Shown one piece after another: positions 11,943-37,202 of a DNA stretch of 41,029 nt. Both the position numbers and the translations under genes were made by a program. This DNA is from Clostridia bacterium (GTDB lineage: Bacteria; Bacillota; Clostridia; Oscillospirales; Acutalibacteraceae): NCBI GenBank assembly GCA_017471765.1, contig JAFURT010000009.1:79367-120395 (forward strand). The letters are read 5' to 3'. The first letter of the stretch is position 1. Every line of letters begins with the position of its first letter. The notes below the pieces were generated by a model, which did no database searches, was not told the origin of the DNA, and saw only the letters and a list, made by a program, of their open reading frames with translations.

Positions 11943-11979
11943 TTGAGGGTGGCACACGCAAAGGAAGGAGTTGAGTGAG

Positions 11980-15732: not shown

Positions 15733-15759
15733 TGATACCGAAGCAAGGGAAGGTCGAAT

Positions 15760-18123: not shown

Positions 18124-18758
18124 TGAAAAAAGAAACCATCTATACAATGCCGTTCCATGCGCTGAAAAATCCCTTTTCGGCGTTTGAGACCATGCGGTAC
18201 CGCAAGCTGACCTCGCTGAAAATGTCCGTCATCCTGTTTTTCGTGTTCGCTTTACAGAGCGTCATTCAGCTCCAGATGATGGGCAAGCAGTTTCAGATTG
18301 TCCAGCAGAGCGCCATTAACCTGCCGCTTTCGGTGTTTTCGGCCTTTATCATCCTGTTCATTTGGACGTTGGCCAACTGGTGCTTCTGCGTACTGATCGA
18401 AGGCAAGGCGACCTTCAAGAACATCTGGATCATTTCGGTATACTCCCTGATGCCCTACACCATTGCCGGGTATATCAACATCGTCCTCGGCCTGGTGCTG
18501 ACCCAGGAGGAAGGGGTATTCCGCACCATCATTACCGCCCTGGGGGCGCTGTGGAGCCTGGTGATGATCATTGCGGCGTTTATGAATTTCCATGAGTTTG
18601 AGTTTGGAAAGGCCGTGCTGTCCATCATCCTGACGGTCATCGGCATGGTTATCATCGCCGTGCTGATCTTCATTGTTTACAGCCTGTTCCAGCAGTTGTT
18701 CTCCAACGTGCTGGTGCTGGTCAACGAGATTATATTCCGCATCAAGCTGGCGGGATAA
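18120..18758 (+). CDS. YIP1-family membrane protein
   Basis: A 212-residue integral membrane protein with about five hydrophobic helices and the YIP1 domain pattern: NPFSAFETMRYRK at the N-terminus, a polar-aromatic WTLANWCFCVLIEGKATFK loop, and YSLMPYTIAGYIN. ATG 18120 overlaps the previous stop as ATGA; the ATG at 18123 is equally possible, and AAAGGAG serves both. The tight overlap with the propeller gene suggests the two act as a complex. Its molecular role in bacteria is unknown. Confidence 0.85.
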   Translation: MMKKETIYTMPFHALKNPFSAFETMRYRKLTSLKMSVILFFVFALQSVIQLQMMGKQFQIVQQSAINLPLSVFSAFIILFIWTLANWCFCVLIEGKATFKNIWIISVYSLMPYTIAGYINIVLGLVLTQEEGVFRTIITALGALWSLVMIIAAFMNFHEFEFGKAVLSIILTVIGMVIIAVLIFIVYSLFQQLFSNVLVLVNEIIFRIKLAG

Positions 18759-20992: not shown

Positions 20993-21877
20993 TTGGCAAA
21001 GAGACGCTTGTCGTATGAGAAGAAAAAATCGGCATACGGATATATCTTTATCAGTCTTTGGCTGATTGGTTTTGTGGCTCTGTTCCTCGTTCCGTTCATC
21101 AACGCCATTATTTACAGCTTCAACGAGCTGGATATCGAGCCCGGCCAACTGCATATGACCTATGTGGGGTGGGAGAACTATCTGCGTGCCTTTACCCAGG
21201 ACGCTGACTTCCTGCCGGTCTTCACCGGCACCCTGACGGCGGCGGTGGTACAGACACCGGTAACCGTGCTGTTCTCTCTGTTTGTGGCTATTCTGCTGAA
21301 TGCGAATTTCAGAGGCCAAGGCATTGCCCGCGCCATCTTCTTCCTGCCGGTGGTCATTATGAGTGGCCCGGTGGTGGCGGTGATGAACTACGATGTGTTC
21401 TTCAACACCCTGGTCAGTGGCGACAGAGCCTCGGCCATGCTGACCATCACCAGCACCCAGGATATTTTGCAGACGCTGGGTGTCAACCCCCTGATTGCGG
21501 ATTACATTGTGAATATCACCAACCAGCTCTTTAACTTGTCCTGGAGCTCCGGTATTCAGATTCTTATCTTCATCGCCGGCCTGCAGGGTATCCCCACCAC
21601 CTATTACGAGGTGGCGCAGATCGAGGGAGCTACCGGCTGGGAAATTTTCTGGAAGGTGACCCTGCCCTCCATCGGGCCGATGATTCTGGTTAATGTGTTC
21701 TACACGCTGTATGACGGCTTGCTGACCGGCGGTGAGATGTTCGGTAAGATCTCCCATCATTTGGGCAACCTGGAGTTTGCCTATGCGTCGGCACTGTCGC
21801 TGATGTGCTTTATCGTGTGGGGATTGCTCATCGCCATTGTGTACAAGATCGTCAGCAGTTGGGTTTCGGTAAAATAA
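20993..21877 (+). CDS. Sugar ABC transporter permease (MalF type), system 2
   Basis: A 294-residue membrane protein starting at a TTG directly after the DUF5696 stop codon, with GGGGGGAG five to ten bases before it. Helices begin at YGYIFISLWLIGFVALFLVP. The EAA loop reads YYEVAQIEGATGWEIFWKV followed by TLPSIGPMI. It differs clearly from the first MalF-type permease, so this is a second importer rather than a recent duplicate. Confidence 0.9.
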   Translation: MAKRRLSYEKKKSAYGYIFISLWLIGFVALFLVPFINAIIYSFNELDIEPGQLHMTYVGWENYLRAFTQDADFLPVFTGTLTAAVVQTPVTVLFSLFVAILLNANFRGQGIARAIFFLPVVIMSGPVVAVMNYDVFFNTLVSGDRASAMLTITSTQDILQTLGVNPLIADYIVNITNQLFNLSWSSGIQILIFIAGLQGIPTTYYEVAQIEGATGWEIFWKVTLPSIGPMILVNVFYTLYDGLLTGGEMFGKISHHLGNLEFAYASALSLMCFIVWGLLIAIVYKIVSSWVSVK

Positions 21878-21913
21878 GCAGGCGCTGTTTTGAGCCGAGA
21901 AAGGAGAAATGTT

Positions 21914-22888
21914 GTGAGCGTTTTCACAGGTATCGCCGACCAGGCGAAGAATACAGCACCCAAAAAGGCGGGCATGGACAGCGTCCTTTTCCGCAAAAAG
22001 CTGGTGGAAAAGCTGATCGCCTTTTTCCGGATATTTTTGATTATCGGCCTGTCCTTTGTCATTCTGTATCCGGTGCTGTATATGCTCAGCGTATCCTTCC
22101 GGGCGTCTGCGGACGTGCTGGACCCGGCGGTGGTGTGGATTCCCCGCACCTTTACGCTGGAAAATTATAAAATGGCGGCGTGGTTGCTGGACTACCAGAA
22201 GTCTTTGGTGACCTCTCTGCTGATGGCTGTGTTGTGTGCGGTGCTGCAGTGCTTCACCTGCTCGGTAACCGGCTACGGCTTTGCCCGGTTTAATTTCAAG
22301 GGACGCACCGCCCTGCTGTTGGGCGCACTGGCCACGCTGCTGGTGCCCATCCAGACCACCATGATGCCCCTGTACAACAGCTTTGTACAGTTCACTCACC
22401 ATACCGGCATCCCCACCATCGACACCCCCATCCCCATGGCGGTGTCCGCCCTGTTTGGCGTGGGCTTGAAGGCGGGTCTGTTCATCTTTATTTTCTTCCA
22501 GTTCTACAAAGGGATGCCCATGGAGCTGGAGGATGCGGCATACATCGACGGATGCGGCCCCATCAAAGCGTATTTCCGCATTATGATTCCCAACGCCGGC
22601 GCCATGTTCCTGGTGGTGTTCCTGCTCAGCCTGGTGTGGTATTGGAACGATGATTACGCTTCAGTGCTGTATTATCCTTCCAACGCCCCCCTGTCGGTAG
22701 GGCTGTCCAACATGGCCAATAAGATCTTGGCCTCGGCCAAGCCGGACGGCACCGCCTATACCCAGGCGGATACCATGGCCTATCTCAAGACCGGCGCCCT
22801 GCTGTGCGTCGCCCCCATTCTGGCGGTGTATGCGGTGTTGCAGCGTCGGTTCACCAAGAGCGTGATTACTTCCGGTATTGTAGGGTAA
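21914..22888 (+). CDS. Sugar ABC transporter permease (MalG type), system 2
   Basis: A 324-residue membrane protein. The GTG at 21914 is preferred because AAGGAG lies seven bases upstream; the in-frame TTG at 21890 has no ribosome site. The first helix is around IFLIIGLSFVILYPVLYML, and the EAA loop reads MELEDAAYIDGCGPIKAYF followed by RIMIPNAGAMF. It lies 23 bases before the enzyme array. No binding protein adjoins this pair directly; the four binding lipoproteins from 32242 onwards are the likely partners. Confidence 0.9.
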   Translation: MSVFTGIADQAKNTAPKKAGMDSVLFRKKLVEKLIAFFRIFLIIGLSFVILYPVLYMLSVSFRASADVLDPAVVWIPRTFTLENYKMAAWLLDYQKSLVTSLLMAVLCAVLQCFTCSVTGYGFARFNFKGRTALLLGALATLLVPIQTTMMPLYNSFVQFTHHTGIPTIDTPIPMAVSALFGVGLKAGLFIFIFFQFYKGMPMELEDAAYIDGCGPIKAYFRIMIPNAGAMFLVVFLLSLVWYWNDDYASVLYYPSNAPLSVGLSNMANKILASAKPDGTAYTQADTMAYLKTGALLCVAPILAVYAVLQRRFTKSVITSGIVG

Positions 22889-22911: not shown

Positions 22912-24570
22912 ATGAAGAAAAAGAATTTTTTCCTGGATGAAGCGGTGCATACCCCCCGCTATGACGAGGAGGGCTTCAGCATCTACACCGATTACGGCCG
23001 TCACGGCCCCTCGCAGGACCTGCCCCGTGACCTGGTGGAGAAGACCATCCGGGACCTGCGTTTGGGCCGTCTGTATGACGATGCCTTTGACGGCCCGAAG
23101 AATGCGGTGGGCGAGTGGGGCTACTCTTTCCTCAACCTGGACAATTTCGCCTCCTCCTTTGACGTGTATCTGCAGGGCGGCGGTTGGCGGAGGAATACCC
23201 CCACCGACGACCGGGACGCCCTGGCTATCATCCGGCGCTGGCTGTTCACCCAGTTTGCGGCGGCACCCCACTCCCTGGAGGAGGGGTCTGCCGGGATGGG
23301 CAGCTTCAACGGCCACTCCCACTGGCAGCACTATGCCGGCGAGTGGGGCTTCGACTACATCGGCGCCGAGATTGGCGAGAATGTAGCCTCCCACCAGGCC
23401 CACCTGGCCTTTTCCCGTGGCGCCGGTAAGCAGTATGGGAAGTTCAGCATTTTGTACTTCTCCGACTGGTACCAGAGCACCACCGGCTCCTGGGAGGAGA
23501 CCAACACCTGGGAGGGCTTCGGCTTCCCGGACGGTGGCCACTCCATGAGCCTGCTCAAGCGCACTTATATGATGAGCTACATGGGCAGCGTATCCAAGTT
23601 TGTGTTCGAGGCCGGTGCCTGTCTGGGCTTCCTTGGCCCCAACCACCGGACAGAGGATGGCCTGCTGGCCCTCAGCCCCTACGGTGAGGCGATGCGGGAA
23701 TTGTGCGATTTTACGCACCGTCATCCGGATGTGGGCCTTTGCTATGTCCCCATCGGCATCGTGCTGGATTATTACCACGGTATTGCCGGGTATAGCCTAC
23801 AGGATGGGGCGTCGCTTAAATGCCACGGCAAGGCCTTCGGCTATTTTGACGAGACCCCCGGGGACAAAATGACCTGGGACCTGTTTGCGCTGTATTACCC
23901 CGGCGGCGGGCTGCTCGGTGGCTATATGGCCCCCGGTATGCCTATGGAGGAGACCTACCAGGTGAACACCCCCTATGGCGACACCTGTGATGTGCTGTTG
24001 CAGAACGCTGACCAGCGGGTGCTGAACAGCTATCCGGTGCTACTCCTCTCCGGCGACATCACTCTGTCGGCCGAGGAGGCGGCCCGGTATGTGGCCTATG
24101 TGCGGCAGGGGGGCACCCTGCTGTGCAACACCGCCTATCTCAAGTATTTTGATAAGTACGCCGCTGCCTATCAGGGCGGCACCCGGCAGGATATCCCCGA
24201 TGGGGAGGGCACCGTCATCGTGTACGGCCCCGACTACAGCGTGGAGAATCTGGGGGACATCCTGCAGGAGCAGTTGCGTAAATATATCCCCTTCACCTTC
24301 TCGGAGGATGTGGAATACCTCATGAACGTGAAGGACGGCAGCCTTATCGTCACCGTCATCAACAACAAGGGCGTCACCAAAGAGCGCCTGGGCGACCCGG
24401 TGGTGGATGAGACCGCCGCTATCGACCTGACGGTGACCTACACCGGTGAGACGGCAGTCAAAGCGGTGCGAGAGCTGTATTATAACCAGCCGGTGAACGC
24501 CGACGGCAACACCGTCCGGATTACCGTCGGCCCCGGCGATTACCGGGTGCTGGAATTTGTATTTGACTGA
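22912..24570 (+). CDS. Novel glycoside-hydrolase-like protein, copy 1 (cytoplasmic)
   Basis: A 552-residue protein without signal peptide, first of five tandem paralogs. Residues about 1-290 resemble a TIM-barrel hydrolase with strongly conserved stretches: GEWGYSFLNL (67-76), NGHSHWQHYA (133-142), GAEIGENV with E153 and E156 (151-158), QAHLAFSRGA (162-171), FEAG with E233 (232-235) and YVPIGIVLDYYHG (278-290). E153 or E156 and E233 are candidate acid/base and nucleophile. Residues about 360-480 look like the glutamine-amidotransferase-like trimerisation domain of GH42 (LNSYPVLLLSGD, RYVAYVRQGGTLL). The last ~80 residues are beta-rich, ending LEFVFD. I know no named family for it. Start ATG 22912 with AGGAGG upstream. 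It is most similar to copy 4. Confidence 0.8.
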   Translation: MKKKNFFLDEAVHTPRYDEEGFSIYTDYGRHGPSQDLPRDLVEKTIRDLRLGRLYDDAFDGPKNAVGEWGYSFLNLDNFASSFDVYLQGGGWRRNTPTDDRDALAIIRRWLFTQFAAAPHSLEEGSAGMGSFNGHSHWQHYAGEWGFDYIGAEIGENVASHQAHLAFSRGAGKQYGKFSILYFSDWYQSTTGSWEETNTWEGFGFPDGGHSMSLLKRTYMMSYMGSVSKFVFEAGACLGFLGPNHRTEDGLLALSPYGEAMRELCDFTHRHPDVGLCYVPIGIVLDYYHGIAGYSLQDGASLKCHGKAFGYFDETPGDKMTWDLFALYYPGGGLLGGYMAPGMPMEETYQVNTPYGDTCDVLLQNADQRVLNSYPVLLLSGDITLSAEEAARYVAYVRQGGTLLCNTAYLKYFDKYAAAYQGGTRQDIPDGEGTVIVYGPDYSVENLGDILQEQLRKYIPFTFSEDVEYLMNVKDGSLIVTVINNKGVTKERLGDPVVDETAAIDLTVTYTGETAVKAVRELYYNQPVNADGNTVRITVGPGDYRVLEFVFD

Positions 24571-24591
24571 TTTTTACGGAGGAGAAGCCCC

Positions 24592-26250
24592 ATGAAGGCG
24601 ACCGACTACATTCTCAACCCGGCGCTGTTCGCCACCCGGTATGCGGCAGATACCAGCGGCTTTATTGGCTATTCCCACTACGGTAAGCACGGCTGTAACG
24701 AAACCGTGCCGCCCCATGTGGCTGAAGAGAACATCCGCCGGCAGGGACTGGGCGAACTCTACCACGCCCCTTACGATGGAAAAAAAGGCTGTTGCGGCGA
24801 GTGGGGATTTACCTTCCTCAATCTGCGGGGCTATTATGCCGGCGATGGCATGCTGGCAGAGGGGTGCGGCTGGATAGAAAATCCCCCCCGGGATGATGCC
24901 GATGCAGTGGCTATCATGCGCCGCTGGATCTTTAAGCAGTATGCCGGAAAACCGTATTATTTAGAAGAAGGCGCTACGGGTATGACCAGTTTTAATGGGC
25001 ATACCCTGTTCCAGCATTATGCTGCCAGCTGGGGCTTTGACCATATCGGTGCCGAAATTGGAGAGAACATCGCCTGCTACCAGGCGCATATGGCCTTCAC
25101 CCGTGGCGCCGCCCGCCAGTACGGCTGTGTGCCGCTGATGTATTTCTCCAACTGGAATCAGGGCACCATCGGCACCGAGGAGCTTCACCCCACCTGGCCC
25201 CAGGGCCTTCCCACCGGCGGCCACTCCATGAGCATCCTGCGCCGGGCCTTCCTTATGAGCTATTTTGGCGGTGCGGCCAGCTTCACCTTTGAAGCCGGTG
25301 CCAACCTGGCCTTCTATGGGCCGGAGCGGGTCACCGAGGAGGGCTTGCTGGAGCTGACCCCCTACGGCAGGATGATGCAGGAGTTGGTGGCCTTCTCTGC
25401 CAAGCACCCCCATATTGGGTATACCTATACCCCTATCGGCGTGGTGCTGGATCACTACCACGGCCTGGCGCTGTGCTCGGCACTGGAAAGTGGCACCGGC
25501 CTCCGCCACGATATGGCCTTTGGTTATTTCCCCAACACCGCCGGGGACGAGATGACCCGGGAATTTTTCAAGAAGCTGTATGCCGGTGCCGGCTTCTTCA
25601 CCTGGCGTGACTGGTACAGCCAGGCGCCGGAGCAGATGCACCTGCTGAATACCCCCTACGGCGATACCCACGATGTCATCACCCACACCGCCTCTCAGGA
25701 GGTGCTGAACAGCTATCCGGTGCTGGTGCTGATGGGGGATATCCAGCTGACGGAGGAGGAAGCCCGGCGGTATGTGACCTATGTGCGGCAGGGCGGCACG
25801 TTGCTGTGCAACACCGCCTACCTCCGCTTCTTTGCGGACTATCAGGCGGCGTATGACGCCGGCGCACAGACCATCGCCGACGGGGAGGGCACAGTTATCG
25901 TCTATGGTCCGGATTACAGTGTGGAGGCGCTGGATGCCATCCTGAAAGAACAGATTAAGAAATATATCCCCTTCACCCTGTCGGATGAGGTGGAGTACCT
26001 GGTGAACGTGAAGGATGGCAGTCTCATCCTCACCCTCATCAACAACGAGGGCGTCACCAAGGTGTATAACGAGGCACCGATCACCGACCCGAGCAAGGCC
26101 AAGACCCTGACGGTCACCTACACCGGCGATGAACCGGTGGTACAGGTGAAGGAGCTGTACTACGGCGAGACGGTGGAGGTAGACGGCAACGCCGTCACCG
26201 TTACCGTCGGGCCCGGTGATGTACAGGTGCTGGAATTTATGTTTGGTTGA
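24592..26250 (+). CDS. Novel glycoside-hydrolase-like protein, copy 2 (cytoplasmic)
   Basis: A 552-residue paralog of copy 1 without signal peptide. It keeps the same landmarks: GEWGFTFLNL, NGHTLFQHYA, GAEIGENI, QAHMAFTRGA, FEAG, YTPIGVVLDHYHG, then the amidotransferase-like part (LNSYPVLVLMGD, RYVTYVRQGGTLL) and a beta C-terminus ending LEFMFG. The middle segment (NTAGDEMTREFFKKLY) groups it with copies 3 and 5, not with copy 1. ACGGAGGAG lies about 10 bases before the ATG. It lies 21 bases after copy 1. Presumably it acts on imported oligosaccharide. Confidence 0.8.
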   Translation: MKATDYILNPALFATRYAADTSGFIGYSHYGKHGCNETVPPHVAEENIRRQGLGELYHAPYDGKKGCCGEWGFTFLNLRGYYAGDGMLAEGCGWIENPPRDDADAVAIMRRWIFKQYAGKPYYLEEGATGMTSFNGHTLFQHYAASWGFDHIGAEIGENIACYQAHMAFTRGAARQYGCVPLMYFSNWNQGTIGTEELHPTWPQGLPTGGHSMSILRRAFLMSYFGGAASFTFEAGANLAFYGPERVTEEGLLELTPYGRMMQELVAFSAKHPHIGYTYTPIGVVLDHYHGLALCSALESGTGLRHDMAFGYFPNTAGDEMTREFFKKLYAGAGFFTWRDWYSQAPEQMHLLNTPYGDTHDVITHTASQEVLNSYPVLVLMGDIQLTEEEARRYVTYVRQGGTLLCNTAYLRFFADYQAAYDAGAQTIADGEGTVIVYGPDYSVEALDAILKEQIKKYIPFTLSDEVEYLVNVKDGSLILTLINNEGVTKVYNEAPITDPSKAKTLTVTYTGDEPVVQVKELYYGETVEVDGNAVTVTVGPGDVQVLEFMFG

Positions 26251-26290
26251 ACTTTGTATTTCCTTACATATAACAAAGGAGGCTTCCCTT

Positions 26291-28231
26291 ATGAAAAAAC
26301 TGGTTTCTATTCTCGTGCTGTTGGCGATGTTGGTTAGTATGACCGCCTGCAACAAAGAGCCGGCAGGTAGCGACCCGGTCTCCACCCCCACGCAGGACGG
26401 AGCGGCGACCACCACAGAGACGGCGGACACGACCACCACCGGTAGCGAGGCCGACGAAACCACCACGACCGCCGGCGATGCTACCACCACGGTGGGCGGC
26501 GGCAAGAACACCACCGCTACCACAGCCAAAAAGGTGACCACCACCACGACAAAGGCACCGGCAAAGAACTATACCTTGAAGGTGTCTGACTTTGTCAAGG
26601 ACGAGTCGGTATGGGCCACCAATTATGTGGAGGGCACCGACGGTTTTACGCCTTACACCGGCTTTGGTCATAGTGGTCCTAATGCCTATGTCCCTCGAAC
26701 CATGGCGGAAAAGAATATCACCCATCACAAGCTGGGCGAGTTGTATTACAGCCCTTATGACGGCAAGAAGGGTATGACCGGCGAGTGGGGCTACACCTTC
26801 CTCAACCTGAACGGCTATACCGCCGGTGACGGTATGCTGGCGGAGGGCTGCGGCTGGATCGTCAACAAGCCCAAGAATGACAAGGACGCCCTGGCCATCA
26901 TGCGCAACTGGCTGTTTAAGCAGTATGCCAATCCTCCTTACAACCTGAAGCATGGGGATAGCGGCATGGGGAGCATGAACGGCCACACCCTGTTTCAGCA
27001 CTATGCGGCGGATTGGGGCTTCGATTCGGTGGGCTCCGAGATTGGCGAAAATATCCTGATGCACCAGGCACATATGGCCTTCACCCGCGGTGCTGCCCGG
27101 CAGTACGATGTGGTGGGCAATATGTATTTCTCTAACTGGAATGCCAGCACCATCGGCACCTGGGAGACCTATCCCAGCTGGCCCCAGGGCGGCCCCACCA
27201 AGGGCCATTCCATGAGCCTGCTCAAGCGCTCCTACCTGATGTCTTATATGGGCGGCGCCTCCAGCTTTACCTTTGAGGTGGGTTGCCGGTTGGCTTTCTA
27301 CGGCACGGAAAAGGTGGACAATGATGGCTGGCTGGAGTTGAGCCCCTACGGCAAGACGATGCAGGAGCTGGTGGCCTTCTCCACCAAGAATAGCGACATC
27401 GGCTATACCTACACCCCCATAGGTGTGGCGCTGGATTATTTCCACGGCCGTGCTACCTATTCCACCCTTCCCGGCAGCAGCGGCTATCGCTACAACATGA
27501 CCTTCGGCTATTTCCCCAACACCGCCGGCGACGACATGTATATGAAGCTGTTTGGCATGCTGTATCCCGAGGCTGGTGATATCGCCGGTAAGGGCTCCTA
27601 CGCCGGCGAGCAGTATTATCAGGTGAACACCCCCTATGGCGACACCCATGACGTCATCATGCACAACGCCAGCCAGAAGGTGCTGAACAGCTATCCCGTG
27701 CTGGTGATGGCCGGCGATATCGCCCTCTCCTCGGCGGAGGCTAAGCGGTATGTGGCCTATGTCCAGCAGGGCGGCACCCTCATCTGCAACACCGCCTACC
27801 TCAAGTATTTCGACAGCTACAAGGCGGCCTATAAGGGCGGCACCCGGCAGGATATCAAGGATGGCAAGGGCACCGTCATCGTGTACGGCCCCGATTATAG
27901 CGTCGATAACCTGGCCCCCATTCTGCAGGAGCAGCTCAAGAAGTATGTTCCCTTCACCATCTCCGACACCGTGGAGTATGTGGTGAATGTGAAGAATGGC
28001 AGCCTCATCCTTACCCTTATCAACAATGCCGGTGTGACCAAGGACCCCAACCAGGATCCGGTGATCGACAAGTCCAAGGCGAAAAACCTGACCATCAAAT
28101 ACACCGGCAACCTGAAGATCAAGCAGGTGAAGGAACTGTATTATGGCACCAAGGTAAGCCTGTCTGGCAACAGTGTGAATATCACTGTGGCCCCCGGCGA
28201 CGTGCAGGTGCTGGAGTTTGTGTTTGATTAA
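26291..28231 (+). CDS. Novel glycoside-hydrolase-like lipoprotein, copy 3
   Basis: A 646-residue lipoprotein. The signal peptide MKKLVSILVLLAMLVSMTAC ends in an MTAC lipobox. It is followed by a ~70-residue Thr-rich linker and then the ~550-residue catalytic-like part seen in copies 1 and 2 (GEWGYTFLNL, GSEIGENI, QAHMAFTRGA, FEVG, YTPIGVALDYFHG). The start is ATG 26291 with AAAGGAGG ten bases upstream; an in-frame upstream codon at 26216 lies inside the previous gene. It belongs to the copy 2/3/5 subgroup. Tethered to the membrane exterior, it would act before import. Confidence 0.82.
   Translation: MKKLVSILVLLAMLVSMTACNKEPAGSDPVSTPTQDGAATTTETADTTTTGSEADETTTTAGDATTTVGGGKNTTATTAKKVTTTTTKAPAKNYTLKVSDFVKDESVWATNYVEGTDGFTPYTGFGHSGPNAYVPRTMAEKNITHHKLGELYYSPYDGKKGMTGEWGYTFLNLNGYTAGDGMLAEGCGWIVNKPKNDKDALAIMRNWLFKQYANPPYNLKHGDSGMGSMNGHTLFQHYAADWGFDSVGSEIGENILMHQAHMAFTRGAARQYDVVGNMYFSNWNASTIGTWETYPSWPQGGPTKGHSMSLLKRSYLMSYMGGASSFTFEVGCRLAFYGTEKVDNDGWLELSPYGKTMQELVAFSTKNSDIGYTYTPIGVALDYFHGRATYSTLPGSSGYRYNMTFGYFPNTAGDDMYMKLFGMLYPEAGDIAGKGSYAGEQYYQVNTPYGDTHDVIMHNASQKVLNSYPVLVMAGDIALSSAEAKRYVAYVQQGGTLICNTAYLKYFDSYKAAYKGGTRQDIKDGKGTVIVYGPDYSVDNLAPILQEQLKKYVPFTISDTVEYVVNVKNGSLILTLINNAGVTKDPNQDPVIDKSKAKNLTIKYTGNLKIKQVKELYYGTKVSLSGNSVNITVAPGDVQVLEFVFD
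26346..26575 (+). repeat. Thr-rich linker module, closely matched at 30352-30575
   Basis: The DNA coding the lipobox and Thr-rich linker of copy 3 is closely similar to that of copy 5 (both begin TGCAACAAAGAGCCG and share GGTAGCGAGGCCG, for example), although the enzyme parts differ more. It marks a recently copied or converted secretion module. Confidence 0.65.
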
Positions 28232-28282
28232 CCTCATTATACTGTTTAGGAGTATAAAAAGGGGGCTATCCCTACGAAAAAA

Positions 28283-30265
28283 GTGATTTCTACTCTCGTG
28301 CTGGTGGCGATGCTGGTTGGTATGACCGCCTGCGGAGACAAGCCTGCGGAAAGCGCCCCGGTGTCCACGCCCACGGCGGATAACAGCGCCACCACCACGG
28401 CGGCGGGGGTTAGCCCTTCTCAGGCCGGATCTTCTGCCGTTGCCGGCACGGACACCACCGCCGCCGGGCAGACTTCTACTGCTGTGGGTAGCGGCACTAC
28501 GGCGAAGACCACCGCGGGGGAAGCCACCACCAAGCCCCAGACCCAGACAGGAGGAAACTACAACTTGAAAAAGAGTGATTTTATTCTTAATGAGTCGGTG
28601 CTGGCTCCCCGTTATTACGGCGACACCACAGTGTTTTACACCGGCTACGGTGTGCTGGGCGGCAGTGACAACACCCCCGCTGAGCTAACCGAAAAGAGCA
28701 TTGAGGCTCATGGCCTGGGCGAGGCCTGGTTCCACCCCCTGGATGGCTGCGAGGACGGCTATGGCTACAACACCCCCCTGGGCTACAAGTGCAATGTGGG
28801 GGAGTGGGGCTATTCCTTCCTCAACATCTCCGGCAATTACCCCGGCGACGGCAAGGAGAAACAGGGTGCCGGCTGGCAGGTATATACCCCAAAAAATGAC
28901 AAGGACGCCCTGGCCATCATCCGCAACTGGCTGTTTGGCAAGTATTCTAATGACGCCCATCACCATATCGAATACGGAAAAGAAGGACAGATGGCCATCA
29001 ACGGCCATGCTCACTGGCAGCACTATGCGGCGGAGTGGGGCTTCGACTGTGTGGGGGCAGAGCTTGGCGAAAATGTCGCCTCTCACCAGGCCCACATGGC
29101 CTTTACCCGTGGTGCCGCCCGGCAGTATGGAATCAAGACGGCGGTAAGCACCTCTAATTGGTACAAGAGCACCATCGGCACCGAGGAGAGCACCGATTCC
29201 TGGCCGGGCTTCGGCAGTAAGGATGGCGGCCACTCCCTCAGTCTCCACCGTCGGGCATTCATCCTATCTTATATGAGCAATATTTCCATGTATGGCTTTG
29301 AGGCATCCTCCCGGCTGTCCTTCCTTGGCCCGGAGTATGTGGACGAGAATGGCATACTGGAATTGAGCAGTTATGGCAAGATGGCCAAGGAGTTGGTGGG
29401 CTTTGCCACTGCCAACCCGGACATCGGCATCAGCTATGCCCCTATTGGCATTGTGATGGATTTTTATCACGGTCTGGCGGCCTATTCCACCCTGCCCGGC
29501 GGAGTCTCGGGCAAGAGCCATAACAAGGCCTTCGGCTATTTCCCCAACACCCCCGGCGACAAGATGAACTGGGATTTGTTTGAGCTGTATTATCCCGGCG
29601 GTGGCCTGTTCGGCGGCTATATGGCGCCCGGTATGCCCGGCGAGGAGGTCTATCAGGTCAATACCTCCTACGGCGACACCTGCGATGTGCTGTTGCAGAA
29701 CGCCTCCCAGACGGTGCTGAACAGCTACCCGGTTCTGCTGCTGTGCGGCGACATCAAATTCACCTCGGCCGAGGTCAAGCGGTATCAGACGTATGTGGAG
29801 CAGGGCGGCACCCTCCTCTGCAATACGGCGTATCTCAAGTATTTCGAGAGCTACAAGGCCGCCTACAAGGGTGGCACCCGGCAGGATATCCGGGATGGCA
29901 AGGGCACGGTCATCGTGTACGGCCCGGATTATAGTGTGGTCAACCTGGGCCCTATCCTGCAAGAACAACTGAAACAGTATATCCCCTTCACCTTCTCCAA
30001 AACCGTGGAGTATTTAGTGAATGTCAAAGATGGTAGCCTCATTGTTACCGTCATCAACAATGATGGCGTTACGAAAGAAGCAACCAAGCCCCCGGTGGTG
30101 GATGCCACCAAGGCCGTTACATTGGACATTACTTACACCGGAGATCTGAAGATCAAGCGGGTCAAAGAGCTGTATTACGGTGAAGCGGTCAACCTGTCCG
30201 GCAATACGGTGAAAACCACGGTGCCGGCCGGTGACTATCGGGTATTTGAGTATGTATTTGATTAA
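28283..30265 (+). CDS. Novel glycoside-hydrolase-like lipoprotein, copy 4 (odd start)
   Basis: About 660 residues. The catalytic-like part is intact (GEWGYSFLNI, GAELGENV, QAHMAFTRGA, FEAS, YAPIGIVMDFYHG) after an MTAC lipobox and a Thr/Ala-rich linker unlike those of copies 3 and 5. Where copies 3 and 5 begin ATG-AAA-AAA, this copy has ACG-AAA-AAA (28274), and the ribosome site is GGGGG instead of GGAGG. The nearest standard start is GTG 28283, given here; it would remove both Lys of the signal peptide. Expression may be weak, or ACG may be used. The middle region (YYPGGGLFGGYMAPGMPGEE) pairs it with cytoplasmic copy 1. The reading frame is otherwise undamaged. Confidence 0.75.
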   Translation: MISTLVLVAMLVGMTACGDKPAESAPVSTPTADNSATTTAAGVSPSQAGSSAVAGTDTTAAGQTSTAVGSGTTAKTTAGEATTKPQTQTGGNYNLKKSDFILNESVLAPRYYGDTTVFYTGYGVLGGSDNTPAELTEKSIEAHGLGEAWFHPLDGCEDGYGYNTPLGYKCNVGEWGYSFLNISGNYPGDGKEKQGAGWQVYTPKNDKDALAIIRNWLFGKYSNDAHHHIEYGKEGQMAINGHAHWQHYAAEWGFDCVGAELGENVASHQAHMAFTRGAARQYGIKTAVSTSNWYKSTIGTEESTDSWPGFGSKDGGHSLSLHRRAFILSYMSNISMYGFEASSRLSFLGPEYVDENGILELSSYGKMAKELVGFATANPDIGISYAPIGIVMDFYHGLAAYSTLPGGVSGKSHNKAFGYFPNTPGDKMNWDLFELYYPGGGLFGGYMAPGMPGEEVYQVNTSYGDTCDVLLQNASQTVLNSYPVLLLCGDIKFTSAEVKRYQTYVEQGGTLLCNTAYLKYFESYKAAYKGGTRQDIRDGKGTVIVYGPDYSVVNLGPILQEQLKQYIPFTFSKTVEYLVNVKDGSLIVTVINNDGVTKEATKPPVVDATKAVTLDITYTGDLKIKRVKELYYGEAVNLSGNTVKTTVPAGDYRVFEYVFD

Positions 30266-30294
30266 AGTGATTTAATACAAAAGGAGGCTTCCCT

Positions 30295-32214
30295 ATGAAA
30301 AAAGTACTTTCACTCCTGTTGCTTGTGACCCTGCTGGTCACCATGACGGCATGCAACAAAGAGCCGACAGGTAGCGATCCGGTGTCCACCCCCACCCAGG
30401 ATGGTGCGGCGACCACCACAGAGACAGCGGACACGACCACCACCGGTAGCGAGGCCGCCGATACCACTACAACCGCCGCCGATGCCACTACCACGGCGGA
30501 CGGTGGCAAGAACACCACCGCCACAACGACCAAAAAGGCCACCACCACGACTACCAAGGCTCCTGCCAAGAACTACAACCTGAAGGCCTCGGATTTTGTC
30601 CGTGATCCCTCGGTGTGGGCGACCAAGTATGCCGACGGCTACAGCGATTTTGTGGCTTACGGCGGATTCGGTGTGCTGGGCCCCAATGCCTATGTTCCGG
30701 CTAACATCGTTGAGAAAAGCATCAAGGCGCAGAAACTGGGCGAGGTGTACTACAACCCCATCGACGGCGTCAAGGGTGCCACCGGTGAGTGGGGCTACTC
30801 CTTCCTCAACCTGAACGGCCACATGGCCGGTGACGGCACGACCATCGAAGGCGCCGGCTGGAGTGTGAACAGACCCAAGAACGACAAGGATGCGGTGGCG
30901 ATCATCCGCAACTGGCTGTTCAAGCAGTTTGCCAATCCTCCGCACAATCTACAGCACGGCTCCAAAGGCATGACCAGCATCAACGGTCACACCTTGTTCC
31001 AGCACTATGCCGGTGAGTTCGGCTTTGATAACATCGGCTCGGAGATTGGCGAAAACATCGGTATGCACCAGGCTCACATGGCCTTTACCCGTGGCGCAGG
31101 CCGTCAGTATGATGCCACCACCATCATGGACTTCTCCAACTGGTTCCAGACCACCATCGGCACCGAGGAGACCTATTCCTCCTGGGATCATATGGGCTTC
31201 CCCACCGGCGGTCACTCCTTGAGCCTCATTAAGCGTGCCTTCATGATGTCCTATATGGGCGGTAGTTCGGCATTTATGTTCGAGGCCGCCTGCCGCCTGT
31301 CCTTCTACGGCCTGGAGCGTGTGAATAACGACGGCGTCCTGGAGCTGACCAGCTACGGCAAGAATATGCAGCAGCTGGTGGCCTTCTCCGAGAAGGCAGA
31401 CGACATCGGCTATGCGTACACCCCCATCGGTGTGGCCATCGACCTGTACCACGGAAAAGCCGTCTATGCCGGCGACTATGCGTGGAACAAGGCGTTCGGC
31501 TACTTCAAGAACACCGCAGGCGACGACATGAACAATGCACTGTTCAAGATGCTGTATCCCGGTGCTCACCCCTTTACGCTGAATAATTCCGAGCACCTCT
31601 TCCAGGTGAACAACGCCTACGGCGATAACTTCGACTTTATCACCCAAAACGCTTCCCAGAAGGTGCTGAACAGCTACCCCGTGCTGTTGCTGTGCGGCGA
31701 CATCGCCCTCTCCAAGGCGGAGGCTGCCCGGTATGTGGAGTACGTCAACCAGGGCGGCACCCTCATCTGCAACACCGCCTACCTGCAGTATTTTGACAGC
31801 TACAAGGCGGCCTACAAGGGCGGCACCCGCCAGGACATCAAGTCCGGCAAGGGTACGGTCATCGTCTACGGCCCGGATTACAGCATCGATAACCTGGGGA
31901 CTATCCTGCAGGAGCAGATCAAGAAATATGTTCCTTTTATCATCTCCTCCGACATCCAGTATCTGGTGAATGTGAAGGACGGTAGCCTGTTTGTGACCCT
32001 CATCAACAACGACGGTGTGACCAAAGCGGCCACCCAGGCCCCTGTAGTGGATAAATCCAAGGCCAAGACCCTGACGGTCACCTACACCGGCAACCTGAAA
32101 CTCCTGCAGGTGAAGGAACTGTTCTACGGCAGCAAGGTATCCCTGTCCGGCAAAGCGGCCACCGTGACCGTGGGCCCCGGCGACGTGCAGGTGCTGGAGT
32201 TTGTGTTTGACTGA
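30295..32214 (+). CDS. Novel glycoside-hydrolase-like lipoprotein, copy 5
   Basis: A 639-residue lipoprotein. The signal peptide (MKKVLSLLLLVTLLVTMTAC) and Thr-rich linker are nearly the same as in copy 3 from the lipobox to residue ~90. The catalytic-like part keeps GEWGYSFLNL, GSEIGENI, QAHMAFTRGA, FEAA and YTPIGVAIDLYHG; the C-terminus ends LEFVFD. AAAAGGAGG lies nine bases before the ATG. It lies 29 bases after copy 4 and 27 before the first binding protein, whose leader is normal. Confidence 0.82.
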   Translation: MKKVLSLLLLVTLLVTMTACNKEPTGSDPVSTPTQDGAATTTETADTTTTGSEAADTTTTAADATTTADGGKNTTATTTKKATTTTTKAPAKNYNLKASDFVRDPSVWATKYADGYSDFVAYGGFGVLGPNAYVPANIVEKSIKAQKLGEVYYNPIDGVKGATGEWGYSFLNLNGHMAGDGTTIEGAGWSVNRPKNDKDAVAIIRNWLFKQFANPPHNLQHGSKGMTSINGHTLFQHYAGEFGFDNIGSEIGENIGMHQAHMAFTRGAGRQYDATTIMDFSNWFQTTIGTEETYSSWDHMGFPTGGHSLSLIKRAFMMSYMGGSSAFMFEAACRLSFYGLERVNNDGVLELTSYGKNMQQLVAFSEKADDIGYAYTPIGVAIDLYHGKAVYAGDYAWNKAFGYFKNTAGDDMNNALFKMLYPGAHPFTLNNSEHLFQVNNAYGDNFDFITQNASQKVLNSYPVLLLCGDIALSKAEAARYVEYVNQGGTLICNTAYLQYFDSYKAAYKGGTRQDIKSGKGTVIVYGPDYSIDNLGTILQEQIKKYVPFIISSDIQYLVNVKDGSLFVTLINNDGVTKAATQAPVVDKSKAKTLTVTYTGNLKLLQVKELFYGSKVSLSGKAATVTVGPGDVQVLEFVFD

Positions 32215-32241: not shown

Positions 32242-33792
32242 ATGAAGAAACTGCTTTCACTTTGTTTGGCAGTGATAATGCTGGTCGGCCTGGCCGCCTG
32301 CGGCGATAAGCCGGCGGAAAGCGACCCGCTGACCAGCGATGTGACGACCACCACCGGGGATGCGGCAGATATCACCACCACTGCCGGTGACACGGCGGAT
32401 ACCACCGCCGGCGGGGCAGAGGAGTCCACCACCACGGCAGGGGACACGCCCACCACCGCCCCTACCGCCGGCAACACGGACAAAAAGCCAACTGCTGATG
32501 TCGGCAAGACTACCGCCACCACCAAGAAAAAGACGGATAAGCCGCCGGCTAACTACGACATCACCACCGCGCCTATGCCCAAGCGCACCTTGACTAATAA
32601 GGAGCTGGTTTATTATCAGTGGGAGGGCATAGTCACTGACAGCAAATCCTGGGATTCGCTGATGAAAAAGCAATTCGGCATCACCTTCAAGGTGAAGAAG
32701 GGAAACTTCTATAATTACTGGAGCTCCCTGGCGATGCTCATCCGTTCCGGCGACTCGCCGGACATCGTGGAGGTATCCAAATTCTCTCCCCGTGTGATGA
32801 GCATGGACGTTCTGCAACCGGTGGACGATATCCTCGACCTCAACGACGGTCTGTGGAACGAGACCCGGGAGACGATGGAAAAATACAGGTGGAAAGGCAA
32901 GGTATATCACACCTTCCTCAAGACCGAAATGGAATCCTGGTTCTTCTATAACACTAAGATGATGCGTAATTACGGTGTCAAGAAGACTCCCAAGGAGCTG
33001 TTCCTGGAGGACAACTGGACGCTGGAAGAGTGCAAAAAGATTATGGATAAGTTCGCCACCAAGGACGGCTCTATCTGGGGTCTGTCGGTGCAGAACTGCA
33101 ACCTGATGGCCATTGCCGGCGTTAAGCTGGTGGACTTCGACGGCACAAACTACCAGCTGAATCTGAAAGACCCGAAATTCGCCACCATCCTCAACTGGAT
33201 CCATTCCGTGGGTGTGGCCGGCAACAACACCATGCAGTGTAACGACCCGGTGGGCGATTTCTGCAACGAGAAGTGCGCTATGCTTCTCACCCCCACCCAT
33301 GTGCTGTATAGCGAGCGAGCCGAGAAGATTCGGGACGATATCGACTGGGTGCCCATGCCTAAGCTGGACAAGGATTCTCCCTACTATCTGGAGATGTACG
33401 AGATGCCCAACCTGGCCATTGCCAAGGGTGCCAAGAACGTGGAGGGGGCCGCCCTGGCTCTGGAGTTCCGCCGCTGGCTGTATCTGGGCCGTGTGCAGGA
33501 GACAGATTATCTCCAGCCTAAGATCAACGCAGCGGTGAAGAAATACAAACTCAACGTGGCTGCTGCTTACGATCACCTGGATAAGGATGAGGTGGCATGG
33601 ACGCAGGAGATCCTGAAGAAGTACGACTATGTCTACACCGATAACGACTGGATCGGCTGGTTGGCCGAGAACGGCTTTATCGCTTCCTTCCCCGGTTACT
33701 ATGAGACGCTCCGTGAGGGTAAGCCCTGGTCCAGCCTGGTAGAGACCGAGTATAATCGCATCAATGCCCTGTTAAAGGCGTTCACGGCCTGA
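32242..33792 (+). CDS. Sugar-binding lipoprotein, array copy 1
   Basis: A 516-residue solute-binding lipoprotein of the CUT1 type. The signal peptide ends in an LAAC lipobox (MLVGLAACGDKP). A ~85-residue Thr-rich linker ends KKKTDKPPANYDITTAP. The binding domain has LAMLIRSGDSPDIVE, LQPVDDILDLNDGLWNE and the YNTKMMRNYGVKKTPKEL hinge region. AAAAAGGAGG lies nine bases before the ATG, a normal leader unlike the next three copies. Conserved Cys residues (VQNC, and MQC...KCAM) suggest a disulfide. The lipobox context CGDKPAES is shared with enzyme copy 4. The likely partner is permease system 2. Confidence 0.87.
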   Translation: MKKLLSLCLAVIMLVGLAACGDKPAESDPLTSDVTTTTGDAADITTTAGDTADTTAGGAEESTTTAGDTPTTAPTAGNTDKKPTADVGKTTATTKKKTDKPPANYDITTAPMPKRTLTNKELVYYQWEGIVTDSKSWDSLMKKQFGITFKVKKGNFYNYWSSLAMLIRSGDSPDIVEVSKFSPRVMSMDVLQPVDDILDLNDGLWNETRETMEKYRWKGKVYHTFLKTEMESWFFYNTKMMRNYGVKKTPKELFLEDNWTLEECKKIMDKFATKDGSIWGLSVQNCNLMAIAGVKLVDFDGTNYQLNLKDPKFATILNWIHSVGVAGNNTMQCNDPVGDFCNEKCAMLLTPTHVLYSERAEKIRDDIDWVPMPKLDKDSPYYLEMYEMPNLAIAKGAKNVEGAALALEFRRWLYLGRVQETDYLQPKINAAVKKYKLNVAAAYDHLDKDEVAWTQEILKKYDYVYTDNDWIGWLAENGFIASFPGYYETLREGKPWSSLVETEYNRINALLKAFTA

Positions 33793-33850
33793 CCGCACGC
33801 CAGTGAAATAAGGTGCACGGCTATGTACGCCTGTCTAAGATAAAACAAGA

Positions 33851-33885
33851 AAGGAGCGTATGGATTATCCATACCAGGCAAGCGA
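33851..33885 (+). promoter_or_regulatory. Unusual translation leader, array copy 2
   Basis: AAGGAG (33851-33856) is 28 bases from the lipoprotein ATG (33885) but only 3 from an out-of-frame ATG (33860). Between them lies a perfect 7-bp inverted repeat TATGGAT-T-ATCCATA (33859-33873). The out-of-frame ATG would open a 42-codon frame overlapping the lipoprotein start. The same arrangement occurs before copies 3 and 4. Confidence 0.6.
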
Positions 33886-35432
33886 TGAAACTGAAAGCAT
33901 TGACAATGGTTTTGGTGATTGCGATGATGGTCTCCTGCTTTGCGGCCTGCGGCAAAGAGCCGGCAGAAAGCGACCCGCTGACCAGTGATGTGACCACCAC
34001 GGGCGATGTGGATGCCACTACTACTACGGCGGCAGATAACAGTACCGTAACGGGGGATGACACCACCACAGCGGCGGACGACACGCCCACCACCGCCACG
34101 GGCAGTAGCGATAACAAGCCGACTGCCGACTCCAACAAGACTACCGGAACCACCAAGAAAAAGACGGACAAACCACCGGCAAACTATGACATCACCACGG
34201 CGCCGCTTCCCAAGAGAACCCTGACGAACAAGAACCTGACCTATTTCTACTGGGGCGACCTGGAAACCGGCGCAAAAGACTGGAACGTGCTGATGAGCAA
34301 GCAGTACGGGGTGAAATTCTCCGTCAAGAAGGCCAACTTCTCCAACTATTGGAACACGCTGGCCATGCTCATCCGTTCCGGCGAGTCCCCGGACATCATC
34401 GAGATGCCGGCGTGGGACTTCTATCCCCGTGCCATCACCATGGATGTGCTCCAGCCGCTGGATGACATTCTGGATCTGAATGACGGCCTGTGGAACGAGA
34501 CCCGTGACATCATGGAAAAATACAAATGGAAGGGGCAGACCTACTTGACCTTCCTCAAGGCGGATATGTACTCCTGGTTCTACTACAACGAGAAAATGAT
34601 GAAGAACTACGGCGTCAAGAAGACTCCCAAGGAGCTGTTCCTGGAGGATAACTGGACGCTGGAGGAGTGCTACAAGATCATGGAGAAGTTCGCCACCAAG
34701 GATGGCTCCAAGTGGGGCCTGACGGTGCAGAACTGTGACCTGCAGGCTATCACCGGCGTGAACCTGGTGGACTATGACGCCACGGCCGGCTACAAGCTGA
34801 ACATGAAGGATCCCAAGATCGCCCAGCTGATGAACTGGATCTATTCCGTGGGCGTGGGCGGCAACAACACCATGCAGTGTAACGACCCGGTGGGTGATTT
34901 CGGCAGTGAGAAATGCGCCATGATCATTACCACTACCAGCCTGCTCTCCAGCGAGCGCGCCCAGAAGATCCGTGAACATATTGAGTGGGTGCCCATGCCC
35001 AAGCTGGATAAGTCCTCCTCCTACTATCTGGAGATGAACGAGGCCCCCAACCTGGCTATTGCCAAGGGCGCCAAGAATGTGGAGGGTGCCGCCCTGGCAC
35101 TGGAGTTCCGCCGCTGGCTGTACCTGGGCCGTGTGCAGACCTCCGATTTCCTGCCTCCCAAGACCAATGCGGCGGTGAAGAAGTACAAGATCAGCGTGGC
35201 CTCCAACTACGACCATTTGGATAAGGATGAGGTCGCCTGGACGGAGGAAGTACTGAAGAAGTACGATTACAAGTATGCCGACATCAGCTGGGGTAGCTGG
35301 GTGAACACCACCGGCCACTGGTCCAGCTATCCGGGCTACTATGAGGTGCTCCGTGAGGGCAAATCCTGGTCCAGCCTGGTTGAGACTGAGTACAACAAGT
35401 TGAACGCTCTGCTGAAGGCTATGTGTAGCTGA
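33885..35432 (+). CDS. Sugar-binding lipoprotein, array copy 2
   Basis: A 515-residue paralog of copy 1. The signal peptide MKLKALTMVLVIAMMVSCFA ends in an FAAC lipobox. The Thr-rich linker ends KKKTDKPPANYDITTAP, and the binding domain keeps LAMLIRSGESPDIIE, YPRAITMDVLQPLDDILD, FYYNEKMMKNYGVKKT and GAALALEFRRWLYLGRVQ. The ATG at 33885 fits the signal peptide best, but its ribosome site is 28 bases away, with a palindrome between. It is closest to copy 4 over most of its length and differs from it in the MQCNDPVGDF segment. It presumably delivers a related sugar to permease system 2. Confidence 0.85.
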   Translation: MKLKALTMVLVIAMMVSCFAACGKEPAESDPLTSDVTTTGDVDATTTTAADNSTVTGDDTTTAADDTPTTATGSSDNKPTADSNKTTGTTKKKTDKPPANYDITTAPLPKRTLTNKNLTYFYWGDLETGAKDWNVLMSKQYGVKFSVKKANFSNYWNTLAMLIRSGESPDIIEMPAWDFYPRAITMDVLQPLDDILDLNDGLWNETRDIMEKYKWKGQTYLTFLKADMYSWFYYNEKMMKNYGVKKTPKELFLEDNWTLEECYKIMEKFATKDGSKWGLTVQNCDLQAITGVNLVDYDATAGYKLNMKDPKIAQLMNWIYSVGVGGNNTMQCNDPVGDFGSEKCAMIITTTSLLSSERAQKIREHIEWVPMPKLDKSSSYYLEMNEAPNLAIAKGAKNVEGAALALEFRRWLYLGRVQTSDFLPPKTNAAVKKYKISVASNYDHLDKDEVAWTEEVLKKYDYKYADISWGSWVNTTGHWSSYPGYYEVLREGKSWSSLVETEYNKLNALLKAMCS

Positions 35433-35524
35433 TAGCCCGCAATCACCCGGAAATATGGGACGCCGCAAGCGATAATAGCGGCATCGTAAAAACGGCAGTT
35501 CCTTGTTTTATAAATATTCTAGGA

Positions 35525-35559
35525 AAGGAGCGTATGGATCATCCATACCAAGCAAGCGA
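35525..35559 (+). promoter_or_regulatory. Unusual translation leader, array copy 3
   Basis: Same layout as before copy 2: AAGGAG (35525-35530), an out-of-frame ATG at 35534 (32-codon frame ending at 35632), the palindrome TATGGAT-C-ATCCATA (35533-35547), and the lipoprotein ATG at 35559. Confidence 0.6.
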
Positions 35560-37118: not shown

Positions 37119-37141
37119 TCTTTTTTGGGAATAACGGGTGT

Positions 37142-37173
37142 TACTGCTGCTGGATGCGGCATCAGCAGCAGTA
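37142..37173 (+). other. Hairpin between binding-protein copies 3 and 4
   Basis: TACTGCTGCTG (37142-37152) pairs perfectly with CAGCAGCAGTA (37163-37173) around a ten-base centre. No T-tract follows, so it is not a clear terminator; it may stabilise the upstream message or give differential expression. Confidence 0.55.
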
Positions 37174-37202
37174 TCTCGTATTTCAGTATAAATATTTTAA
37201 GA

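What the first reader, a model, noticed from the sequence alone, without database searches (positions are those of the whole stretch)
22912..32214. Five-copy tandem array of an apparently undescribed glycoside-hydrolase-like family
Five consecutive genes encode ~550-residue homologs with conserved GEWG(Y/F), NGH...QHYA, G(A/S)E(I/L)GEN, QAH.AF.RGA, FE and PIG...D..HG motifs, then a GH42-like amidotransferase-type domain (LNSYPVL...GD; YV.QGGTL). I cannot match the N-terminal part to a named family. Two Glu positions (E153/E156 and E233 in copy 1) are invariant in all five and could be catalytic. The array sits beside sugar importers, DUF5696 and binding proteins, so a role in breaking down a particular glycan is likely.
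Basis: partly seen in the sequence, partly recalled or inferred. Interest (0 to 1): 0.78.

Follow-up and report, generated by a model that had tools for sequence, protein, structure and literature searches.

The report
Amplified GH42-like sugar-enzyme family
Five side-by-side genes in a bacterial genome encode members of an unnamed enzyme family that looks built to take complex sugars apart, but whose active site does not seem to follow the pattern of the known enzymes with the same shape.

Summary
Five colinear paralogues (c1-c5, 22912-32214; c1-c4 are 54-71% identical to c5) are part of a genome-wide expansion: 22 ORFs in a 1.92-Mb assembly. No Pfam or NCBIfam model over cut-off and no significant PDB sequence matches the N-terminal part. 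The C-terminal ~200 residues are homologous to domains B and C of GH42 enzymes (hhalign E 2.8e-10). An AlphaFold2 model of c2 (pTM 0.87; N-terminal third partly poor) finds GH42, GH164 and GH35-type glycosidases. Relatives lie in a SusC/SusD locus of Phocaeicola and beside GH20C, GH95 and a SASA-type esterase, so a glycan role is likely. A sister family in Clostridia and a ~955-residue long form define a superfamily. By alignment, the presumed GH-A nucleophile position is Ser186 in the window family but Glu in the sister family, so GH42/GH164/GH35 membership fails a defining test, on inferred strand numbering. Best reading: a glycosidase or transglycosidase family with GH42-like architecture and a non-canonical catalytic set. 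Substrate, stereochemistry and catalytic residues are unproven; CAZy/dbCAN could not be searched.

The parts
22912..24570 (+). copy 1 (c1), 552 aa, no signal sequence
   Evidence: ORF and alignment; no Pfam/NCBIfam match over cut-off
24592..26250 (+). copy 2 (c2), 552 aa, no signal sequence; modelled by AlphaFold2 (pTM 0.87, mean pLDDT 78.5)
26291..28231 (+). copy 3 (c3), 646 aa, lipoprotein-type signal (MTAC) and Thr-rich linker
28283..30265 (+). copy 4 (c4), 660 aa from GTG, lipoprotein-type signal; the position homologous to the ATG of c3/c5 is ACG at 28274
30295..32214 (+). copy 5 (c5), 639 aa, lipoprotein-type signal and Thr-rich linker
11971..14811 (+). 946-aa extracellular solute-binding protein (SBP_bac_8/1) with a CBM35-like stretch below the curated cut-off
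   Evidence: Pfam
14824..16626 (+). two ABC importer permeases (14824-15732, 15760-16626)
   Evidence: Pfam BPD_transp_1
16639..18758 (+). NHL-repeat protein (16639-18123) and Yip1-domain protein (18120-18758)
   Evidence: Pfam
18776..20992 (+). DUF5696 protein
   Evidence: Pfam PF18952 E 7.2e-148
20993..22888 (+). second pair of ABC permeases (20993-21877 by a Pfam match just below cut-off; 21890-22888 by reading the translation, not scanned)
32242..38796 (+). four tandem lipoprotein-type paralogues (32242-33792, 33813-35432, 35559-37118, 37237-38796), 60-88% identical to each other; read as solute-binding proteins by inference only (the first two of four were scanned: no Pfam match at E 0.001)

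Best explanation
The five genes encode three-domain carbohydrate-active enzymes: an N-terminal barrel-type catalytic domain (about residues 1-275 of c2), a GH42-type amidotransferase-like domain B and a C-terminal beta-sandwich. Lipoprotein copies (c3-c5) act at the cell surface and signal-less copies (c1, c2) in the cytoplasm, around ABC importers in the same locus, so that a glycan is trimmed outside, imported and trimmed further inside. The N-terminal part has diverged more than domain B, as expected if the copies differ in linkage or sugar but keep the same oligomer-forming domain. Most likely activity: exo-glycosidase or transglycosidase on a complex, probably amino-sugar-bearing glycan. 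I infer that E155 and E234, perhaps with E70, supply the chemistry, and not the strand-4/strand-7 Glu pair of clan GH-A. Shown: paralogy, domain B/C homology, conservation, context. Inferred: barrel topology of the N-terminal half, catalytic residues, localisation, substrate.
For: The C-terminal ~200 residues are homologous to GH42 domains B+C (hhalign prob 96.8, E 2.8e-10). In the AF2 model of c2 Foldseek finds 117 PDB chains at E<=0.001; the 50 listed are GH42, GH164 and GH167 enzymes, IaSGT (GH35), exo-beta-glucosaminidase-type enzymes and one rhamnosidase. Conservation: E155 23/23 and E234 21/23 in the close family; counterparts 57/57 and 57/57 in the sister alignment, 10/10 and 9/10 in the long form. 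Context: ABC importers and DUF5696 in the window; GH95, four GH20C and a SASA-type esterase interleaved with members on contig C4, GH95 and a GH20C again in genome G008; a long-form member directly behind FecR, SusC and SusD in Phocaeicola massiliensis. Twelve of 23 close members have an N-terminal hydrophobic segment; at least 5 switches on the tree with 22 rows labelled. Identity between copies: residues 1-345 47-66%, residues 346-456 62-79%.
Against: No activity data. The barrel has no detectable sequence similarity to any GH: the local alignment to GH42 covers the C-terminal part only, and the A3 and A5 profiles gave no significant GH42 alignment (E 0.022 and 0.016). Foldseek TM-scores are modest (query-normalised 0.32-0.47, rmsd 7.6-18.4 A) and residues 57-91 of the model, which hold E70, are below pLDDT 50. 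By alignment the presumed GH-A nucleophile position is Ser. E234 is Gln in 2 of 23 close members and 1 of 10 long forms. Of the window genes scanned, none is a recognised GH. The 97 scanned neighbours of the sister family show no enriched sugar family: the top Pfam families reach 3 of 97, GH20, rhamnosidase and GH5 families 2 each.
Confidence: 0.6

Rival explanations
1. The proteins are sugar-processing but not hydrolytic: an isomerase, epimerase, lyase or phosphorylase built on a barrel plus amidotransferase-like domain.
For: Two of the long-form members scanned show a C-terminal xylose-isomerase-like barrel (PF01261 E 1.1e-5 in L046 and 7.4e-7 in L161, both below the curated cut-off; three others scanned, L034:7336, L035:942 and L043:6448, did not); xylose-isomerase-like and GFO/IDH/MocA genes lie upstream in the window; the presumed GH-A nucleophile position is Ser in the window family.
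Against: Lipoprotein-type and SusC/D-linked members imply action on oligo- or polysaccharides outside the cytoplasm; the 50 structural neighbours listed are glycosidases or transglycosidases.
Confidence: 0.2
2. The array encodes catalytically silent glycan-binding surface proteins derived from glycosidases.
For: Ser in place of the sister family's strand-7 Glu; E234Q in two members; lipoprotein-type and LRR-fused versions; neighbouring lipoprotein paralogues.
Against: Signal-less copies c1 and c2 have no obvious use as surface binders; E70 and E155 are invariant in 23 of 23, unexpected for dead enzymes.
Confidence: 0.12
3. It is an ordinary, very divergent GH42/GH164/GH35 clan GH-A glycosidase whose catalytic strands I have mis-numbered.
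For: Same three-domain order and Foldseek neighbours. The model's own strand list allows E234 to be counted as strand 7 if 282-286 is taken as strand 8.
Against: 282-286 reads best as the first strand of domain B, and hhalign puts window S186 opposite sister-family E236 on the preceding strand. On the putative strand 4 no acidic residue is conserved in the close family; the sister family has Glu143 there in 42 of 57 only.
Confidence: 0.08

Closest known systems
GH42 beta-galactosidases (PF02449 + PF08532)
   Same: domain order; C-terminal ~200 residues homologous by profile comparison (E 2.8e-10); Foldseek hits
   Different: no match to the GH42 catalytic domain up to E 1; PF08532 scores of 13.7 (c3) and 11.2 bits (c5) against a cut-off of 25.8, none for c1, c2, c4; presumed GH-A nucleophile position is Ser by alignment
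GH164 beta-mannosidase Bs164 (6T5O, 6T7G)
   Same: barrel + trimerisation domain + beta-sandwich (passages of PMC7105311); Foldseek E 1.2e-10
   Different: 10% identity; Bs164 uses Glu160 (strand 4) and Glu297 (strand 7), 137 apart; the conserved pair E155/E234 of c2 is 79 residues apart
GH35-type beta-1,2-glucosyltransferase IaSGT (7VL3) and the exo-beta-D-glucosaminidase group (5GSM; that it is a GlmA is recalled)
   Same: top Foldseek hits (E 2.5e-12 and 3.8e-12); weak Pfam GLMA_2nd matches in the family
   Different: 10% identity; Glu176/Glu343 pair in IaSGT (passages of PMC8861115)
GH5 exo-mannosidase Op5Man5 with GH42-type trimer
   Same: shows that the GH42 domain frame occurs with other catalytic families (passages of PMC8233224)
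   Different: GH5 catalytic domain with Glu156/Glu281
Sister family, loci L074-L152 (unnamed; 76 of 79 titles Clostridia-type, one each Verrucomicrobiia, Kiritimatiellaeota, Lentisphaerae)
   Same: homologous over residues 98-550 of c2 (hhalign E 2.9e-35); shared positions E155/E205, E234/E297, R218/R281, W188/W238
   Different: Glu instead of Ser at the strand-7 position, 57 of 57 aligned, and Glu143 on the putative strand 4 in 42 of 57

Membership tests
GH42 | match to the GH42 catalytic-domain profile | tested here: not met
   no PF02449 match for c1-c5 up to E 1
GH42 | three-domain frame: barrel, amidotransferase-like domain B, beta-sandwich C | tested here: met
   hhalign of A2 to 28 GH42M-positive proteins, C-terminal part, E 2.8e-10; model and Foldseek. 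The barrel half is weakly modelled, so it is met firmly only for domains B and C
Clan GH-A (GH42, GH164, GH35, GH5) | acid/base Glu at the end of strand 4 and nucleophile Glu at the end of strand 7 | tested here: not met
   S186 (23/23) lies opposite sister-family E236; no acidic residue conserved in the close family on the putative strand 4. Rests on inferred strand numbering, not on coordinates
GH164 | sequence similarity to Bs164 | tested here: not met
   best profile match to 6t5o E 0.21, on 36 profile positions in domain B
GH35 (IaSGT/GlmA group) | curated GH35 or GLMA profile over cut-off | tested here: not met
   GLMA_2nd best 15.9 bits in the window copies against a cut-off of 27.7; no GH35 profile listed up to E 1
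Any existing CAZy family | dbCAN/CAZy profile match | not testable with these tools
   no CAZy library on hand
Glycoside hydrolase (by function) | measured glycosidic-bond cleavage | not testable with these tools
   context and fold only

The most novel reading that the evidence does not exclude
A new glycoside-hydrolase family (with its long form, and with a sister family that still has Glu on strand 7 and mostly on strand 4) that keeps the GH42 domain frame but has lost the strand-7 nucleophile of clan GH-A and works with another conserved carboxylate set (E155 on the putative strand 6, E234 on strand 8, with E70 nearby), amplified to 22 genes in one small genome as both surface and cytosolic enzymes.
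Probability: 0.3. Interest if true: 0.72.

Novelty: new variant of a known kind. Interest (0 to 1): 0.52.

Why it matters
The superfamily is found in many gut Clostridia (32 of the 79 sister-family record titles name a herbivore gut sample) and reaches Bacteroidota and three PVC-type records, yet the members scanned here carry no Pfam or NCBIfam family name for the N-terminal part. If it is a glycosidase family with a displaced catalytic set, it would show that the GH42 frame can host another mechanism, and it would give a first handle on 'hypothetical proteins' in gut glycan loci. The paralogue set in one genome is also a natural panel for testing how specificity diversifies.

Tried and rejected
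Rejected: that the N-terminal part belongs to a family held in Pfam, NCBIfam or PDB by sequence. Pfam scans of c1-c5, of ten close, long and sister proteins and of nine more relatives, NCBIfam scans of the first two sets and PDB sequence searches with c5 and with the A2 profile gave nothing over cut-off except a GH42M domain match in one remote relative (L048, 27.7 bits). PF01456 'Mucin' hits of c3 and c5 (E 0.0023, 0.0038, below cut-off) are the Thr-rich linker. The viral structure library gave no useful match (best E 2.3e-7 with TM 0.16).

Inconclusive: neighbours of the sister family. 97 adjacent proteins were scanned out of 141 picked by script from 154 candidates of 120-700 aa in 47 of 79 loci (471 neighbours called in all). 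The top Pfam families reached 3 of 97.

Led nowhere: the genome-contig scan with the window profile (71 pattern matches, none a relative), the viral-contig scan (7, none a relative), the sister protein against plasmids (none), the long-form profile in 391 genomes of the class (own genome only at E<=1e-30). Text searches, of which I saw listings and abstract starts only: DUF5696 gave 0 papers, one search gave 0, searches listed nothing that by title and abstract start describes this family. The global alignment of A2 to GH42 placed the GH42 nucleophile ambiguously, so the strand-7 statement rests on A2 against A3 and on strand order.

Not done: a model of the sister family (job interrupted, then the tool was off), distances between residues (no coordinates given), VIA-align (absent), dbCAN/CAZy (absent), naming of the window's organism.

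Full report
OBSERVATION. The window holds five consecutive + strand genes, c1 22912-24570, c2 24592-26250, c3 26291-28231, c4 28283-30265 and c5 30295-32214, with gaps of 21-51 nt. Identity to c5 is 71% (c3), 57% (c4), 59% (c2) and 54% (c1). c1 and c2 have no signal sequence; c3-c5 have a lipoprotein-type signal ending MTAC and a Thr-rich linker.

NOT IN THE FAMILY LIBRARIES HELD. No Pfam or NCBIfam model reaches its cut-off for any copy. The weak Pfam hits that are not linker or signal (DUF4159, GLMA_2nd, Glyco_hydro_42M, ABC_transp_aux, DUF4350) fall on the amidotransferase-like part. A profile of 23 members finds no PDB sequence at E<0.2; the best is GH164 (6t5o, E 0.21, domain B). Of ten close, long and sister relatives scanned, only one remote one (L048) passes a cut-off, that of the GH42M domain; nine further relatives pass none in Pfam. 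CAZy itself could not be searched.

A GENOME-WIDE EXPANSION. c2 matches 23 places in its own 1.92-Mb, 78.6% complete assembly. Counting two pieces of one ORF once, these are 22 ORFs: 17 of about 500-730 aa and 5 of about 955 aa (count). Searched with c2, 5 of 40 genomes match, own genome included; the only other one rich in copies is G008 of the same genus, with 10 places. With the A2 profile, 4 of 300 genomes of the family match at E<=1e-20, 17 of 394 of the order at E<=1e-10, and 1 of 398 of the phylum at E<=1e-15, own genome included each time. Matches outside G000 and G008 are remote (best E 3.1e-34, against 1e-217 or better inside). On the tree of 23 members, an 11-member clade (window five, four on contig C24, one each on C28 and C33) has no G008 member; the rest includes G000-G008 pairs (C34/G8C20, C32/G8C16, C4_1/G8C18_c, C4_3/G8C18_d). 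In this sample of genomes the window array is therefore part of a lineage-specific amplification. Both assemblies are incomplete (79% and 85%), so absences are not proof.

WIDER SUPERFAMILY. Two further groups are homologous by profile comparison: a ~955-aa long form (A4; E 1.5e-41) and a ~550-aa sister family (A3; E 2.9e-35, residues 98-550 of c2). A genome-contig scan with the sister profile gave 117 pattern matches, 110 relatives, of which the best 80 were kept as 79 loci: 76 with Clostridia-type titles and one each titled Verrucomicrobiia, Kiritimatiellaeota and Lentisphaerae; 32 titles name a herbivore gut sample (my count). A xylose-isomerase-like C-terminal barrel shows in two long forms (L046 E 1.1e-5, L161 E 7.4e-7, both under the cut-off) and not in three others scanned. 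The long form is also in Phocaeicola massiliensis and twice in Aureibacter tunicatorum.

FOLD. AlphaFold2 of c2 on a 50-row alignment gave pLDDT 78.5, pTM 0.87; residues 16-36, 57-91, 189-195, 295-308 and 335-342 are below 50. Foldseek against PDB gives 117 matches at E<=0.001; the 50 shown are IaSGT (GH35), GH42, GH164, exo-beta-glucosaminidase-type, one rhamnosidase and one GH167 enzyme, with TM 0.32-0.47 normalised by the query. Independently, hhalign of the family to 28 proteins from GH42M-positive loci aligns the last ~200 residues of c2 to the GH42 C-terminal part at E 2.8e-10, prob 96.8; the long form does so at E 1.6e-6; the sister profile and the mixed A5 profile do not (E 0.022, 0.016). 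So the GH42 frame is well supported for the C-terminal part and plausible, not proven, for the barrel.

ACTIVE SITE. In the close family E70, E155, S186, W188 and R218 are 23/23 and E234 is 21/23 with 2 Gln. In the sister alignment the counterparts of E155 and E234 (E205, E297) are 57/57, and E102, proposed as the counterpart of E70 from its EW motif only, is 57/57. In the long form the counterparts at 213 and 295 are Glu in 10/10 and 9/10. hhalign puts c2 S186 opposite sister E236 in the motif YYEPW (read); E236 is 57/57, and the long form has Ser there, 10/10. If residues 282-286 are the first strand of domain B, as in GH42, S186 sits at the end of strand 7, where clan GH-A has its nucleophile (Glu297 in Bs164, passages of PMC7105311; for IaSGT, Glu343, passages of PMC8861115). 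E155 then ends strand 6 and E234 strand 8. On the putative strand 4 the sister family has Glu143 in 42 of 57 (13 Ser), so many sister proteins could still be canonical GH-A enzymes; the close family has no conserved acidic residue between 72 and 131 except D/E104 (20 of 23) at a helix start. The model shows only five barrel strands of three or more residues before 282 and two of two residues, so this numbering is an inference. On it, the window family fails the defining residue test of clan GH-A while keeping the frame.

CONTEXT. In the window the genes from 10065 to the first lipoprotein paralogue at 32242 follow one another with gaps of at most 51 nt: MocA oxidoreductase, xylose-isomerase-like protein, solute-binding protein, two permeases, NHL protein, Yip1 protein, DUF5696, two permeases, the five copies, then four lipoprotein-type paralogues (60-88% identical). 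A matching core (binding protein, permeases, NHL, DUF5696) opens the contig C4 locus, followed by GH95, family members, five long forms, four GH20C genes (all four scanned and matched) and a SASA-type esterase. G008 has a similar cluster with GH95 and GH20C (one of its four GH20C-like genes scanned). DUF5696 itself is common in the genus (11 of 12 genomes searched), so it does not mark the family. In Phocaeicola the long form follows FecR, SusC and SusD. Against this, 97 scanned neighbours of the sister family show no enriched family, and no gene of the window that was scanned is a recognised GH.

HOW IT MOST LIKELY WORKS. Surface lipoproteins (c3-c5) and cytosolic enzymes (c1, c2) of one family lie beside sugar importers: trimming outside, import, further trimming inside. 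Types with and without an N-terminal hydrophobic segment switch at least 5 times on the tree (22 of 23 rows labelled, C28 left out because its N-terminus is fused; 5 of 20 inner branches are poorly supported). Residues 1-345 differ between copies (47-66% identity) more than residues 346-456 of domain B (62-79%), as expected of diversified specificity on a shared oligomer frame. GH20C and GH95 in the related loci point to an amino-sugar- and fucose-bearing glycan, but this is a guess for the window locus, which has neither among the genes scanned.

VERDICT. Real, unusual in copy number, and without a name in the libraries held. GH42-like in architecture, not a member of GH42, GH164 or GH35 on the tests made, probably a glycan-active enzyme family with a non-canonical catalytic set. 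Chemistry and substrate are open.

Noticed in passing
window 28274-28285: c4 has ACG where c3 and c5 have their ATG, with a similar ribosome-binding site upstream; the next start is GTG at 28283, which drops the two Lys of the signal peptide.
   Followed up: partly
window 32242-38796: Four tandem lipoprotein-type paralogues; the second and fourth are 86-88% identical. No Pfam match for the two of four that were scanned.
   Followed up: partly
L037:4667-6856 (contig C28, runs off the contig end): One family member is fused behind repeats that by eye are BspA-type leucine-rich repeats; a BspA-type LRR protein and an Ig/LPXTG protein flank the four copies on contig C24.
   Followed up: partly
L153, L034, L035 (contig C4) and L042, L043, L156 (G008): A shared large glycan locus: importers, NHL, DUF5696, GH95, family members, GH20C array and (scanned on C4 only) a SASA esterase.
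   Followed up: partly
L161:11386-17730 (Phocaeicola massiliensis record filed as plasmid): SusC/SusD locus with a long-form member followed by a protein with FGE-sulfatase-like and hydrazine-synthase-alpha-like domains.
   Followed up: no
L162 (Aureibacter tunicatorum plasmid pAT4): Two long-form-like proteins (1182 and 1510 aa ORFs) lie within about 25 kb of an annotated family 20 glycosylhydrolase.
   Followed up: no
window 18776-20992; 7 places in the genome: DUF5696 (0 papers) recurs beside NHL, Yip1-like and permease genes in the loci read; an undescribed component of importer loci.
   Followed up: no
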